From Acidobacteriaceae bacterium (GTDB taxonomy: Bacteria; Acidobacteriota; Terriglobia; Terriglobales; Acidobacteriaceae): a stretch of 64,000 nucleotides of DNA. The translations under genes were made by a program, and so were the position numbers. The notes beneath the pieces were generated by a model. It saw only the letters and a program-made list of their open reading frames with translations, ran no database searches and had not been told where the DNA came from. How positions within the stretch are numbered: the first letter of the stretch is position 1; the number at the start of each line of letters is the position of its first letter. Location of the stretch: the NCBI GenBank assembly GCA_003151335.1, contig PLXE01000091.1, forward strand, positions 62,001-126,000, given 5' to 3'. Positions 6,144 to 48,231 of this stretch are shown piece by piece.

Positions 6144-6281
6144 CTGTGCCGTCCCTGAAGGGACTCGGATCGTTCTCCCCCTTACCCAGCACTCCGCCTG
6201 CGGCTCCGTGCTGGGCTAAGCTGTACCGCGCCTGCCTCCACCCCAGATCGCGCAAAAGCGGCGCGACCTGGGGACCCCGGC
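6144..6281 (+). repeat. Dispersed intergenic palindromic repeat, copy A
   Basis: It begins with GTGCCGTCCCTGAAGGGAC, then a stem built on TTACCCAGC/GCTGGGCTAAG, and ends with a GCGCAAAA...GGCGC hairpin followed by GGGGACCCCGG. Its 6182-6222 segment (41 bases) is identical to 48169-48209 in copy D. A separate perfect 14-bp palindrome CGGGCATATGCCCG lies just before it at 6124-6137. No gene is seen between 6099 and 6453 apart from this repeat and the pirin leader. Confidence 0.8.
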
Positions 6282-17479: not shown

Positions 17480-17595
17480 GTATCGCTAGAGCAGATTTTG
17501 AGTTGGTGTCTCCGACTTGTACGGGTTGAGCGGGCCTTCAGAGCGTTTGCGAGAACTCGTTTTGAGTTGGCACGGTGGAACGATTACGCAAAGTC

Positions 17596-17688
17596 CAGCC
17601 CCGCAGGGGCGAAATTGCCGTTAGCCCAGGGCGCAAGCCCTGGGTAAAGTGGGGAAAAATTAACGAGTCCCTTCAGGGACGGCACAGC
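17596..17688 (-). repeat. Dispersed intergenic palindromic repeat, copy C (inverted)
   Basis: Read on the minus strand it has the same order as copies A and D: GTGCCGTCCCTGAAGGGACTCG, then ACCCAGGGC/GCCCTGGGCT, then CGCCCCTGCGGGGCT. It lies in the 275 bases after accD, where no gene is seen. The segment at 17491-17515 (TAGAGCAGATTTTGAGTTGG) loosely resembles 19172-19191 (TAGAGCAAATTCGGAGTTGG). Confidence 0.75.
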
Positions 17689-18735: not shown

Positions 18736-18770
18736 CTCTCGCACACTCACACTTGGGGTGCCCCGTTCTT

Positions 18771-18848
18771 GTCATCCCGAGCGGAGCGAAGCGGAGTCGA
18801 GGGACCTGCTGTTTGGCTAGGGCGGGGCAGTTCCCGCCTCGACTCCGC
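18771..18848. repeat. GTCATCCCGAGCGGAGCG-type dispersed repeat with 12-bp inverted arms
   Basis: The unit begins with GTCATCCCGAGCGGAGCGAA. A GCGGAGTCGAGG arm (18791-18802) is matched perfectly by CCTCGACTCCGC (18837-18848). A related sequence, GTCATTACGAGCGAAGCG, lies at 43205-43236 after era. GGGGTGCCCC precedes it at 18755-18764. Confidence 0.65.
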
Positions 18849-25878: not shown

Positions 25879-25979
25879 CTGTGCCGTCCCTGAACCACCC
25901 CAACAAGCGCAAAAACGGCGCTTGTCGGGGACCCCGGTCACGCCCTGGGCTAAAACCAATTCCGCCCCTCCGGGGCTCG
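25879..25979 (+). repeat. Dispersed intergenic repeat, copy B (interrupted)
   Basis: It opens with GTGCCGTCCCTGAA like copies A and C. A second module (about 25896-25937), an AAGCGC/GGCGCTT hairpin flanked by CCACCCC and GGGGACCCCGG, follows in place of the GGGACTCG half. It resumes with CCCTGGGCTAA and CGCCCCTCCGGGGCT. The second module also ends copy A. The 238 bases between 25761 and 25998 contain no gene. Confidence 0.65.
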
Positions 25980-25998
25980 ACTTTGCGCAATCAGCCGT

Positions 25999-40920: not shown

Positions 40921-42188
40921 GCCTGCCGTTGTCCATCCTTTTGGTGGTTTTGATGGCGCTGCTGGCCCTGGTGTCCTACGTGGACCGGCTCTACGCGGAG
41001 ATGGGAAAGTTTTTGGGGCGGGAGTTCCAGGAGAACCTGGACGCCTACGAGCATCACGTCGAGCCCAAACTGCACGTGAGCCGCGACCGGGCTGCGCTCT
41101 CGATGGCCGTGCTGACCCAGATGTGCATGGCCAGCATTGGCGTGCTCATCGGCTACGTGCTGTTCATGGAAAAGCGCTGGGTCGTGCTCGATTTGGTGCA
41201 GGCGGCGGTGAGTCTCATCTTCATCATCGTCATCTTCAACCGTTTGCTGCCGTATCTATTTTTCGTGCGCACTAGAGGTGAGTGGCTGGCGCGATGGGTC
41301 CCGGTTTTACGGACGCTAATCTATCTTGCCGTACCCGTAACATTGATTCTAGGCTTCGCTCTGTCGGTCGCATCGCTCTCCAAGGAGCATCCGGGACCGC
41401 AGCCTGAGCACCCGTCGGAGGCGGTGGACGCTCTGATCGAAGCCGGTCAGGAAGAGGGCATTCTGGAGGAGGGCGACCGCGACCTTATCCAGTCGGTCGT
41501 GGAATTCGGCGACAAGACAGTGCGCGAGGTGATGACACCCCGACCCGAGATCGTCGCGGTCCCCATCGACACCACCATCGAGGAATTTACCGAGCTGATA
41601 AAGAAGCATCCCTATTCGCGCATACCGGTGTATGAAGGCGAGATCGACCATATGAAAGGTATCGTGTATGCGAAGGACCTCTTGCAGGTCCTCGATACGG
41701 ACGCGCGCACCAAAACCGTGCGCGACTTGATGAAGCCCGATGTGTACTTTGTCCCCGAAACCAAGCTGGGCAGCGAACTCATGCGCGAGATGCAGCGCGA
41801 CAACATTCGCATGGCCATCGTCATCGACGAGTACGGCGGAGTCGCGGGCCTGGTCACCATCGAGGACCTGGTGGAAGAGATCGTTGGCGAGATCCGCGAC
41901 GAGCACGAAAAGGCTGAGGTGATGAAGGAGAGCGGGTCCTCGTACATCTTCAACGGCAACACCGATGTGGACCTGCTGGAAAAATTGCTGGGCGTGCGGC
42001 CCGACGAAAAAGAGGCGACCACCATTGCCGGGCTGGTAAGCGAACTCGCCGGACATATCCCCAAGGCGGGCGAAGTCTTCGAGGAGAACGGATTGCGCTT
42101 CGAAGTGTTGGAATCCACCGAACGCCGCATCGATCGCGTGCGGGTTAGTCTGCAGACCAGTTCTGCCTCCACCCAGGTTGGAAGCTGA
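40917..42188 (+). CDS. CNNM/CorC-type transporter protein with CBS pair
   Basis: A 423-residue protein. The N-terminal third carries membrane segments of the CNNM type. Then come two CBS domains (VREVMTPRPEIVAVPIDTTIEEFTELIKKHPYSRIPVYE... and RDLMKPDVYFVPETKLGSELM) and the C-terminal CorC_HlyC domain. Such proteins function in Mg/Co efflux or resistance; the exact ion here is not known. It overlaps ybeY by four bases. Confidence 0.9.
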   Translation: MSLPLSILLVVLMALLALVSYVDRLYAEMGKFLGREFQENLDAYEHHVEPKLHVSRDRAALSMAVLTQMCMASIGVLIGYVLFMEKRWVVLDLVQAAVSLIFIIVIFNRLLPYLFFVRTRGEWLARWVPVLRTLIYLAVPVTLILGFALSVASLSKEHPGPQPEHPSEAVDALIEAGQEEGILEEGDRDLIQSVVEFGDKTVREVMTPRPEIVAVPIDTTIEEFTELIKKHPYSRIPVYEGEIDHMKGIVYAKDLLQVLDTDARTKTVRDLMKPDVYFVPETKLGSELMREMQRDNIRMAIVIDEYGGVAGLVTIEDLVEEIVGEIRDEHEKAEVMKESGSSYIFNGNTDVDLLEKLLGVRPDEKEATTIAGLVSELAGHIPKAGEVFEENGLRFEVLESTERRIDRVRVSLQTSSASTQVGS

Positions 42189-42189
42189 C

Positions 42190-43185
42190 ATGGCATTTCG
42201 ATCCGGCTTCGTCTCCATCATCGGACGCCCCAACGCGGGAAAGTCCACCCTGCTGAATGCGCTGGTCGGCGAAAAACTCGCCATCGTGACTCGCAAGCCG
42301 CAAACCACGCGCAATCGCATTCAGGGGATCATCAACGTCGAGCGCAAGGGCAAGAAACCCGCTCAAGCGAAAGAAGCTGGGGTGGGGCACCCACGCCCGG
42401 CGGGACAAATCGTTCTGGTTGATACTCCCGGAGTTCACAAGCCGATCAACTCGCTGAACCGGCGCATGATGAAGGAAGTGTATGACGCGCTGGAAGGCTG
42501 CGATCTGCTGCTGCTGATCGCGGACGCGACCGCCAGGTTCGGCGCCGGCGACAAATTCGTGCTCGACATTGTGAAAAAGAGCGGCCAGCCCTGCTTCCTG
42601 CTGCTGAACAAGATCGATGTGCTCGACAAACAACGGTTGCTGCCGCTCATCGCGGAGTATAAAGAGCGGCACGAATTCGCCGAGGTGATCCCGATTTCGG
42701 CGATGAAACGCGAAGGCCTCGACGCATTGCTGGCGTCGGTGATGAAGGCGCTTCCCGAGGGGCCGCGATATTTTCCCAAAGACCAGCTCACCGATCAGCC
42801 GGAGCGATTTCTGGTGGCGGAGTTGATTCGCGAGCAGGTGCTGTTGGCAACCGAGCAGGAAGTGCCCTATGCGACGACGGTGCTGATTGACCAGTACGAA
42901 GAGGGCGCTAGACTGACGCGTGTCGCCGCAACGATTTACTGCGAGCGTGAGGGGCAGAAGGCGATCCTGATTGGCAAACAGGGCTCGACGTTGAAGAAAA
43001 TCGGGACGGCGGCGCGGCTGCAAATCCAGGGACTGCTCAACACCAAAGTGTTTCTCGAACTCTTCGTGAAGGTGCGCGCCGGCTGGCGTGATTCGCGCGA
43101 CTTCGTGCAGGAAACCGACTGGCGGACCCAGCTTCAGAACATGTCCATGGCCAAGCAGAAGGAAGAGCCCGAGCCGGAAAGCTAG
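42190..43185 (+). CDS. era: GTPase Era with an 18-residue insertion
   Basis: A 331-residue Era, a GTPase that binds 16S rRNA in 30S assembly. Motifs are G1 GRPNAGKS (12-19), TTRNR (39-43), G3 DTPG (79-82), G4 NKID and the C-terminal KH domain with IGKQGSTLKKIG. Between ERKG and QIVLVDTPG there are 18 extra residues (55-72, KKPAQAKEAGVGHPRPAG) not expected in the family. Their DNA (42351-42404) contains GGGGTGGGGCACCCACG, the core of an intergenic repeat in this window. The insert is in frame and lies in the loop between the switch strands, so the protein may still work. The start at 42190 is preferred to TTG 42178. Confidence 0.95.
   Translation: MAFRSGFVSIIGRPNAGKSTLLNALVGEKLAIVTRKPQTTRNRIQGIINVERKGKKPAQAKEAGVGHPRPAGQIVLVDTPGVHKPINSLNRRMMKEVYDALEGCDLLLLIADATARFGAGDKFVLDIVKKSGQPCFLLLNKIDVLDKQRLLPLIAEYKERHEFAEVIPISAMKREGLDALLASVMKALPEGPRYFPKDQLTDQPERFLVAELIREQVLLATEQEVPYATTVLIDQYEEGARLTRVAATIYCEREGQKAILIGKQGSTLKKIGTAARLQIQGLLNTKVFLELFVKVRAGWRDSRDFVQETDWRTQLQNMSMAKQKEEPEPES
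42351..42404 (+). repeat. Repeat-like 54-nt insertion inside era
   Basis: The segment interrupts the expected GAGCGCAAGGG-ACAAATCGTT reading and is bounded by GGG on both sides. It holds an AGCG-AAAGA-AGCT-like hairpin followed by GGGGTGGGGCACCCACG, close to the second module of intergenic copies A and B. Confidence 0.7.
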
Positions 43186-43204
43186 ACAGCTCGCTTCTAA
43201 AATT

Positions 43205-43301
43205 GTCATTACGAGCGAAGCGAGGAATCTGCTGTTGTTTGCGCCTGAGACGACGAATGAAAAGGCGTGTGCCCCCACCCAACCTTCCTTTGGTTGGGTG
43301 G
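43205..43301. repeat. Dispersed repeats downstream of era
   Basis: GTCATTACGAGCGAAGCG (43205-43222) is related to the unit at 18771. It is followed by a perfect 10-bp stem, CCACCCAACC (43275-43284) and GGTTGGGTGG (43292-43301), within a TGCCCCCACCC...GGGTGGCCGGGG context. The stem might also stop transcription of the era block. Confidence 0.65.
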
Positions 43302-43338
43302 CCGGGGTCTGATATTATCCTCCAAAGATACGAAAGAC

Positions 43339-43998
43339 ATGCCCGCCGAGGCCAATCTACTCACGCTTATTGCCGTGACGTGCTGTGTGTTCTGCACAGC
43401 GTGCACGAATTGGGCTGCCCGCTCGACCCAAGAGAACGGGACCACCCAACAGAACGTATCTCATCCACAACGTTACGTTCCCGTCGGCAACAATCCTGAG
43501 ATTGCACTCGACACTGAAACTGGAGTGCTGTGCCGAACTATTGCAGACACGAATGACCCCCTAGATATTCTCGACCCCTCATGTGCAGTAGATCAGGAGC
43601 AAAAGAAGCTAGGGTTTATTCCGATCGCCTGTAAGAATGGCAAGACCTGGGTGCGAGGCGAGGGCGATAAGAGTCCCTCCCCATATACGAAGCTTCCGAC
43701 TTGCGGAGCCAACAGAACAGCCGCGCCGCAGCCCGCGAACACTCCCGCTGGGTCTGTCAGCGTCACAGCTCCCGATGGCGTGACCTACGTTTTCCCCAAC
43801 CAAAAAACGGCTGACGACTTCAAGGCCGCGGCCCACATTCAATCAGTTCCCAGTGATTTGCAGCAAAGTTCGCCCTCGGAGCAGCAGAAGGTAGCCCCAA
43901 CCCCGCAGACGCATGTTTTTAGCGTGTCAAAGTGGCAAGCGGCCAACCCGAAAGGCGATGCGAACGCCGCCAGAGCTGAAGCGAAACGCCGAGGATAG
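43339..43998 (+). CDS. Possible lipoprotein of unknown function
   Basis: A 219-residue protein with a hydrophobic N-terminus ending in two cysteines (LLTLIAVTCCVFCTACTNW), compatible with a weak lipobox. The mature part is polar with a short domain (VTAPDGVTYVFPNQKTADDFKAA) and Pro/Ser/Gln-rich flanks. Its base composition and codon use are visibly less GC-rich than the surrounding genes, as in the next gene. Function is not assigned. Confidence 0.6.
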   Translation: MPAEANLLTLIAVTCCVFCTACTNWAARSTQENGTTQQNVSHPQRYVPVGNNPEIALDTETGVLCRTIADTNDPLDILDPSCAVDQEQKKLGFIPIACKNGKTWVRGEGDKSPSPYTKLPTCGANRTAAPQPANTPAGSVSVTAPDGVTYVFPNQKTADDFKAAAHIQSVPSDLQQSSPSEQQKVAPTPQTHVFSVSKWQAANPKGDANAARAEAKRRG

Positions 43999-48111: not shown

Positions 48112-48231
48112 GAGAACTGTACCGTCGCTCCCTCTGCCGTCCCTACGGGACTCGTTGTTTTTCCCAAGTTACCCAGCACTCCGCCTGCGGCTCCGTGCTG
48201 GGCTAAGCTCTTTCGCCCTCCGGGCTGGTTC
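48112..48231 (+). repeat. Dispersed intergenic palindromic repeat, copy D
   Basis: It has TGCCGTCCCTACGGGACTCG, then a stem with TTACCCAGC/GCTGGGCTAAG (48169-48209, identical to 41 bases of copy A) and CGCCCTCCGGGCTGG. A C-rich tract of ACTAACCACTGATCCC type follows at 48316-48358. No gene lies in 48070-48357. Confidence 0.8.

What the first reader, a model, noticed from the sequence alone, without database searches (positions are those of the whole stretch)
42351..42404. Repeat-derived in-frame 18-residue insertion in the essential GTPase Era
Era normally reads directly from the ERKG segment into QIVLVDTPG. Here 54 in-frame bases add KKPAQAKEAGVGHPRPAG between the switch strands. The DNA contains the GGGGTGGGGCACCCACG core that also occurs between genes (21813, with relatives at 18755 and 43275) and a hairpin resembling the second module of copies A and B. 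It is flanked by GGG on both sides. This parallels the palindromic elements known to enter Rickettsia genes, but in a core ribosome-assembly GTPase.
Basis: partly seen in the sequence, partly recalled or inferred. Interest (0 to 1): 0.78.

Follow-up and report, generated by a model that had tools for sequence, protein, structure and literature searches.

The report
Mobile hairpin repeat inside Era gene
A 39-base piece of a small mobile DNA hairpin has landed in the gene for the ribosome-assembly enzyme Era in an acidobacterium without breaking it, adding 13 amino acids to a loop, and the same kind of hairpin sits inside other core genes of this genus.

Summary
The insertion is real and repeat-derived, but it is 39 nt / 13 aa (KPAQAKEAGVGHP, window 42355-42393), not 54 nt / 18 aa. 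Era was found in 8 of 9 genomes of the genus: 3 carry the insert (G000, G101, G100) and 5 have an empty site, three of these at 91-92% DNA identity. The inserted DNA is a copy of a hairpin repeat, (G)AAAATCCCCACCCAAGC-loop-GCTTGGGTGGGGCACCC, with 17 copies at E<=1e-6 in this genome. In two relatives, inverted pairs of it flank Y1 transposase genes, one of them tested and confirmed as a REP-associated tyrosine transposase (RAYT). Era's GTPase motifs are intact, and the insert lies in a low-confidence loop between beta strands 2 and 3. Best reading: a RAYT-mobilised, REP-like hairpin landed in frame at a permissive loop and was tolerated. The same repeat or a sister family also sits in frame in pheT, argS, an Lhr-type helicase and others. 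Ten of ten distinct in-gene sites share one orientation; three (era, argS, lhr) look hit more than once. Intragenic REPs, including in tRNA synthetases, are already published, so the kind is known. The Era host, GGTG foot, polymorphism and recurrence are the new parts. No function of the peptide is shown.

The parts
42190..43185 (+). era, GTPase Era (331 aa with the insert)
   Evidence: NCBIfam NF000908 361 bits (cut-off 237) and TIGR00436 278 bits (cut-off 116), Pfam MMR_HSR1 + KH_2; GRPNAGKS at 12, TTRNR at 39, DTPG at 78, NKID at 140, SA at 170 present
42355..42393 (+). 39-nt REP-like hairpin insertion, translated as KPAQAKEAGVGHP (Era residues 56-68); equally readable as 42354-42392 (GAAACCC...GGGGCACCC between GGCAA and ACGCCC)
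   Evidence: genus DNA alignment with 5 empty and 3 filled sites, junctions, own-genome repeat search, models R1 and R2
42358..42386 (+). hairpin: 5' arm CCCGCTCAAGC, loop GAAAGAA, 3' arm GCTGGGGTGGG; GGCACCC follows (GGTG foot on the other strand in the consensus)
   Evidence: fold -16.3 kcal/mol as RNA on the coding strand; R1 alignment
43264..43308 (-). divergent copy of the same hairpin family just downstream of era
   Evidence: R1 30.8 bits E 7.6e-6, R2 32.4 bits
60278..60318 (+). weak relative of the hairpin
   Evidence: R1 22.5 bits E 9e-4
   Evidence: R1 11.0 bits E 0.69; pattern search: 2 window matches at up to 3 mismatches, and 6 of 100 shuffles reach 2

Best explanation
The insert is a recently acquired copy of a small mobile, REP-like DNA hairpin whose mobilising enzyme is a REP-associated tyrosine transposase (RAYT, an HUH/Y1 single-strand nuclease). 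The unit, about 39-41 nt, is AAAAT-[stem-loop]-CACCC (on the other strand GGTG-[stem-loop]-ATTTT). It inserted between ...CAA and ACGCCC of era with no visible target duplication. Because the copy is 39 nt long and has no stop codon in the Era frame, it is translated as 13 extra residues at the tip of the beta2-beta3 hairpin, a loop that already varies in length in the family; the GTPase stayed functional and the allele persisted. Shown: insertion, repeat identity, polymorphism, RAYT linkage in relatives, intact Era motifs, mostly synonymous differences between two carriers. Inferred: that the RAYT moved it, that Era works, that it is near-neutral, and that orientation is restricted because the reverse orientation would put a terminator-like hairpin plus T-run into the mRNA.
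For: Polymorphism: empty in G104 and G103 (92.1% DNA identity), G102 (90.7%), G063 and G106; filled in G000, G101 and G100. Repeat: own-genome hits; 93 matches at E<=1, some of them both strands of one hairpin, 17 at E<=1e-6; Era-free model 40.0 bits, G100 copy 49.4, G101 copy 37.9. RAYT link: the G101 RAYT L175 has inverted R1-type hairpins of 63.4 and 59.9 bits, one on each side, the right one overlapping its 3' end; L175, L052 and L053 all exceed the NCBIfam REP_Tyr_transpos cut-off of 80 (105, 98, 118 bits); 7 of 127 hairpins (the rows down to E 3.6e-6) lie within 500 nt of 4 of 47 Y1 hits, expected 0.19, P 1.4e-9 (a few of the 47 are fragments of one gene). Function kept: GTPase motifs present; G000-G101 differ at 44 synonymous versus 9 nonsynonymous codons, insert included. 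Location: residues 54-67 pLDDT <50 between strands 43-50 and 72-78. Orientation idea: 51 of 76 copies not called in-gene have >=5 A in the 10 nt before the stem versus 4.7% of window 10-mers; of 2 terminator-like calls around L175 (shuffles 0.6, sd 0.8) one is this hairpin on the predicted strand.
Against: G000 itself has no RAYT flanked by this exact subfamily; the two found carry sister families. G103 has no Y1 hit but 32 hairpins at E<=1e-4, so not all copies can be mobile now. The foot is GGTG, not the canonical GT[AG]G. The insert in G100 (79% identity) beside empty close relatives needs two insertions, a transfer or several precise losses; I cannot say which. In-gene copies have fewer A before the stem (5 of 14 with >=5 A, mean 4.0 versus 5.13, P 0.007), so the terminator argument is weaker for them. 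The Era model is mediocre (mean pLDDT 76, pTM 0.57; residues 27-42 also below 50), so 'loop' rests partly on alignment to solved Eras. All nine titles I saw are metagenome-assembled. No expression data.
Confidence: 0.87

Rival explanations
1. Ordinary loop-length variation: the beta2-beta3 loop of Era expands by slippage or drift, and the resemblance to a repeat is chance.
For: The loop varies in the family; L009 has an 11-aa insert there, and other genera have inserts at about residues 105-110 and 226-229 of the empty-site protein. The L009 insert is A-rich and does not look like this hairpin.
Against: 86% identity over 42 nt to another copy in the genome (E 3e-7); Era-free model 40.0 bits. 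In 48 Era loci from outside the genus (of 98 such genomes sampled) the only model hit inside era is in L131, at E 0.57.
Confidence: 0.02
2. Domesticated module: the hairpin or its peptide is kept because it does something, for example adds a basic loop near the switch regions or tunes era mRNA.
For: Recurrence at the same site in G000/G101 and G100, at the same site in argS (two hairpin families) and nearly the same site in lhr; one orientation at 10 of 10 sites and a dominant reading frame.
Against: Absent in 5 of 8 genus Eras; the third inserted codon already differs A/N/T between G000, G101 and G100; tolerance plus filtering can explain the frame and part of the recurrence.
Confidence: 0.08
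3. Assembly or binning artefact in a metagenome-assembled genome.
For: The genus relatives named are MAGs.
Against: Three separate assemblies carry it with different sequences but equivalent junctions; the frame is intact in all three; similar in-frame copies are in several other genes.
Confidence: 0.02

Closest known systems
REPs found inside genes and mobilised (by hypothesis) by RAYTs (PMC3733652; PMC6006769)
   Same: Short hairpin units of 20-40 nt, many copies, mostly intergenic, RAYT genes flanked by copies; some copies inside genes of DNA repair, RNA helicases and tRNA synthetases; in-frame REPs within tnpAREP genes themselves (passages).
   Different: Foot here is GGTG, not GTAG/GTGG; host is Acidobacteriota; 'GTPase' does not occur in the main text of PMC3733652 (its supplementary gene list was not read); same-site recurrence across genomes is mentioned in the passages I saw only for recB of two Xanthomonas species; a one-orientation pattern was not among those passages.
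TIRs of acidobacterial TIRYT tyrosine transposases (PMC3733652)
   Same: Acidobacterial tyrosine transposases flanked by terminal inverted repeats, one set of which is a repeat family in Koribacter versatilis.
   Different: I had no Koribacter TIR sequences to compare, so identity with those TIRs is untested.
Rickettsia palindromic elements (RPE-1, RPE-4, RPE-6)
   Same: Palindromic repeats inside genes that are read as protein.
   Different: In PMC3733652 the R. conorii repeats fall in the CGTC class, which has no associated transposase, and RPE-1 is longer; no sequence comparison was made here.

Membership tests
RAYT-associated REP / REPtron (broad sense) | short imperfect palindrome of about 20-40 nt in many copies | tested here: met
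   12-pair stem, 7-nt loop; 17 copies at E<=1e-6 in G000
RAYT-associated REP / REPtron (broad sense) | inverted copies flank a RAYT gene | tested here: met
   G101:C73, G063:C25 and G063:C130 each have one copy per side, in opposite orientation; not met for this subfamily in G000, where L052 is flanked by a sister family
RAYT-associated REP / REPtron (broad sense) | the neighbouring transposase is a RAYT | tested here: met
   NCBIfam NF047646 above cut-off for L175 (G101:C73), L052 and L053; only these 3 of 47 Y1 hits were tested, the two G063 genes were not
RAYT-associated REP / REPtron (broad sense) | mostly intergenic | tested here: inconclusive
   14 of 90 copies judged inside or overlapping genes; the other 76 were not each proven intergenic
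canonical GTAG-class REP | GTAG or GTGG tetranucleotide at the 5' foot of the hairpin | tested here: not met
   the foot is GGTG in the consensus (A1, A3: CACC after the 3' arm)
CGTC-class REP | CGTC tag and no dedicated transposase | tested here: not met
   no CGTC tag in the consensus; RAYT linked
RAYT-mobilised element | RAYT binds and cleaves this hairpin | not testable with these tools
   needs biochemistry
Rickettsia palindromic element | sequence relationship to RPE families | not tested
   no RPE sequences compared; only the literature description used
Rfam RNA family | match to a curated RNA family | tested here: not met
   no match at E<=1 in window 41500-43700

The most novel reading that the evidence does not exclude
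In this acidobacterial genus, RAYT hairpins repeatedly and independently enter the same few loops of core translation and repair proteins (Era, ArgRS, PheRS beta, Lhr-type helicase, a LigD-like enzyme), always in one strand orientation and mainly in one frame (P-T-x-A-K-x-x-W-V-G-H-P). Insertion into coding DNA would then be targeted or selectively retained rather than random and merely tolerated, and a selfish DNA hairpin would be seeding new protein loops.
Probability: 0.22. Interest if true: 0.78.

Novelty: new member of a known kind. Interest (0 to 1): 0.52.

Why it matters
It gives a clean case (empty and filled alleles at 91-93% DNA identity) of a transposase-linked DNA hairpin becoming protein sequence in a GTPase that ribosome assembly depends on. 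It also gives a genus in which the fate of such insertions can be followed gene by gene, which makes 'do REPs get exapted, or only tolerated?' directly testable.

Tried and rejected
The 54-nt/18-aa length was rejected. The exact 17-mer core was a poor probe: 6 own-genome matches at up to 2 mismatches against 2 for its backward control. Repeat finding inside the window alone missed the family (one search lists neither the era site nor 43275). R1 contains the Era copy, so its Era score is circular; R2 was built without it. Family-wide Era loops at about residues 105-110 and 226-229, and the 11-aa insert of L009 at the Era site, look non-REP; only the L009 insert DNA was folded. Of the 100 genomes, Era was looked at in 50: the own one, G063 and 48 others. 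A tree could not resolve the five close genomes, so gain versus loss stays open. The bases beyond the GGTG foot were looked at by eye and seemed variable, so no target consensus is claimed. In the census, copies near the ends of open frames that I judged to lie outside the gene were left out of the in-gene count, among them G104:C40 and G103:C100:79277 (opposite orientation) and G063:C60 and G101:C64 (same orientation); the orientation P value depends on that judgement. The small ORF in L204 has no family assignment: the reference I gave was wrong (60 aa of another frame). Literature: searches (39 papers, 20 listed; 51, 15 listed; 2; 13,352, 10 listed) on REP, RAYT, Acidobacteria and Era; others (2; 13) on Rickettsia-type elements. 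Only PMC3733652 and PMC6006769 were opened, as search passages, not whole.

Full report
WHAT IS THERE. The ORF at window 42190-43185 is GTPase Era: NCBIfam PRK00089.1 361 bits and TIGR00436 278 bits, both over their cut-offs; Pfam MMR_HSR1 and KH_2. The motifs expected of an active GTPase are present (motif names recalled). In G063, a genome of the same genus, the sequence runs ERKGK-RPAGQ; in the window genome (G000) 13 residues, KPAQAKEAGVGHP, lie between. The insert is therefore 39 nt, window 42355-42393, or equally 42354-42392, since one base is ambiguous.

POLYMORPHISM. The genus holds 9 genomes; 8 gave an Era at E<=1e-50, and G105 (71% complete) did not. Three carry the insert: G000, G101 (94.3% DNA identity to G000) and G100 (79.1%). 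Five do not: G104 and G103 (92.1%), G102 (90.7%), G106 (77.5%) and G063 (77.1%). Outside the genus, 48 Era loci (28, 20; half of the 98 other family genomes sampled) were scanned with the repeat model; the only hit inside era is in L131 at E 0.57. By matching coordinates and contig lengths, G101 is MAG palsa_254, G100 bog_257, G104 bog_382, G103 palsa_340, G102 palsa_354, G063 bog_169 and G106 MAG_BO43; G000 has no name here.

THE INSERT IS A REPEAT. A 73-nt query from era hits 6 other places in the own genome at E 3e-7 to 3.5e-3; 8 more matches have E 0.55 or worse. The six show one design: CCCACCCAAGC, a 7-nt loop, GCTTGGGTGGGGCACCC, often after AAAAT. Model R1 (8 copies, Era included) gives 93 matches at E<=1 in the genome, some of them both strands of one hairpin, and 17 at E<=1e-6. 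Because R1 contains Era, I built R2 from 10 copies without it: Era scores 40.0 bits (E 1.6e-7), the G100 copy 49.4 and the G101 copy 37.9. In the family, 28 of 100 sampled genomes, the own one included (25 of 79 genera), have R1 matches at E<=1e-6. Rfam has no match around the insert.

WHAT MOVES IT. Two Y1 transposases were found in G000. Both exceed the cut-off of NCBI's REP-associated tyrosine transposase model, as does L175 of G101. L052 is flanked on both sides by a sister hairpin with the same GGGGCACC end, and the same kind of end is seen around L053. In G101 the RAYT L175 has inverted hairpins of the Era subfamily itself on both sides, 63.4 and 59.9 bits; the second overlaps the 3' end of its frame. 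Two Y1 genes of G063 have the same arrangement; these were not tested against the RAYT model. The fourth, in G104, is a fragment with a hairpin on one side only at that threshold. I infer that RAYTs mobilise the hairpin; no activity was tested. Read from the other strand the unit is GGTG-hairpin-ATTTT. GGTG is not the GT[AG]G foot of canonical REPs (PMC6006769, passages seen), so I call it REP-like and RAYT-associated, not a GTAG REP.

EFFECT ON ERA. AlphaFold2 with an alignment of 40 Eras gives mean pLDDT 76; residues 54-67 are below 50, between strands 43-50 and 72-78. Alignment to solved Eras puts the gap at the same loop. The loop varies in length among relatives. G000 and G101 Eras differ at 44 synonymous and 9 nonsynonymous codons, insert included, which is consistent with purifying selection with the insert in place. 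Whether the insert helps, harms or is neutral is unknown.

OTHER GENES. A census of 90 copies in the genus (the rows with E<=1.2e-7, all at 45.2 bits or more) found 14 in or overlapping ORFs that I judged genes from codon-position GC and family names: era (G000, G101, G100); pheT (G000); an Lhr-type helicase (G103 and G104 internally, G000 at the C-terminus); a LigD-N protein tail (G103, G104); an ORF with a RibH domain and a VOC-like front ('VOC' is recalled; G106); an RND permease (G101); argS (G063); a small ORF tail (G101, no family known); and the 3' end of the L175 RAYT. Family names. pheT carries a net 54 nt only in G000; six relatives (G101-G104, G106, G063) read FGGGEP or similar, G105 has a different short insert, and the G100 contig ends there with a short unrelated stretch. 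In lhr the G103 site is empty in G000, G101, G102, G104 and G106 and has no hairpin peptide in G105, but G063 has a degenerate hairpin at nearly the same place; G100 was not covered. At the lhr C-terminus G000 has a hairpin, and G101, G103 and G063 have degenerate ones. In argS, G063 has the Era-type hairpin where G000 and G101-G104 have a sister hairpin (CCCACCCTTTCGCC...GGCGAAAGGATGGGGCACCC and variants), in the same orientation and frame; G106 has none, and G100 and G105 were not covered. All 14 copies have CCCACCC...GGGGCACCC on the coding strand; counted as distinct sites without the RAYT this is 10 of 10 (two-sided binomial P 0.002). Frames: P-T-Q-A-K-type in 10 copies, H-P-S-K-type in 4, the third frame in none. 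A possible reason for the orientation is that the reverse reading is a hairpin followed by ATTTT, terminator-like; this is inference, and in-gene copies have fewer A at that place than the others (5 of 14 versus 51 of 76 with at least 5 A of 10). The cores are also rich in six-frame openness: 12 of 17, versus 0.19 in shuffles and 0.21 in window 36-mers.

GAIN OR LOSS. G100's insert sits between the same bases as G000's (CAA | ACGCCC), two codons shorter upstream, although G100 lies outside the close five, and G063 and G106 are empty. Two insertions at one target, a transfer, or several precise losses would all fit; argS with two different hairpin families at one site favours repeated insertion there.

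KNOWN OR NEW. Intragenic REPs, including in tRNA synthetases, RNA helicases and repair genes, and in-frame REPs in RAYT genes, are published (PMC3733652 and PMC6006769, passages only). Acidobacterial tyrosine transposases with terminal inverted repeats are also published there. The kind is therefore known. I saw no report of an Era case in the listings of the searches named in Tried and rejected, but the supplementary gene lists were not read.

Noticed in passing
G000 C22:35486-35526 (L070, L182): In-frame hairpin (full copy plus a half copy, net 54 nt) inside pheT, seen only in the window genome among the genus genomes compared.
   Followed up: yes
L280, argS of G000 (C1:162111-163655): argS carries a sister hairpin family in frame at the site where G063 argS carries the Era-type hairpin.
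   Followed up: yes
L228-L236, L248, L273: Lhr-type helicase in the genus: Three different hairpin sites in one helicase gene across genomes, one internal site occupied in two distant genomes.
   Followed up: partly
[quoted passage not shown]
   Followed up: partly
window 6160-6229 and 48147-48216: A 70-nt direct repeat (81%) containing the palindrome CCCAGCACTCCGCCTGCGGCTCCGTGCTGGGC, probably another repeat family.
   Followed up: no
window 17582-17633 and 25941-25992: 52-nt inverted repeat pair, 87% complementary, probably another interspersed family.
   Followed up: no
window 18742-18840: A sister hairpin (GGGGTGCCCCGTTCT ... GGCTAGGGCGGGGCAGTT) that appears interrupted by another sequence; most of the stretch is missing in the G103 alignment.
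   Followed up: partly
G103 (genus): 32 hairpins at E<=1e-4 but no Y1 transposase found at E<=0.001, so its copies may be fossils.
   Followed up: no
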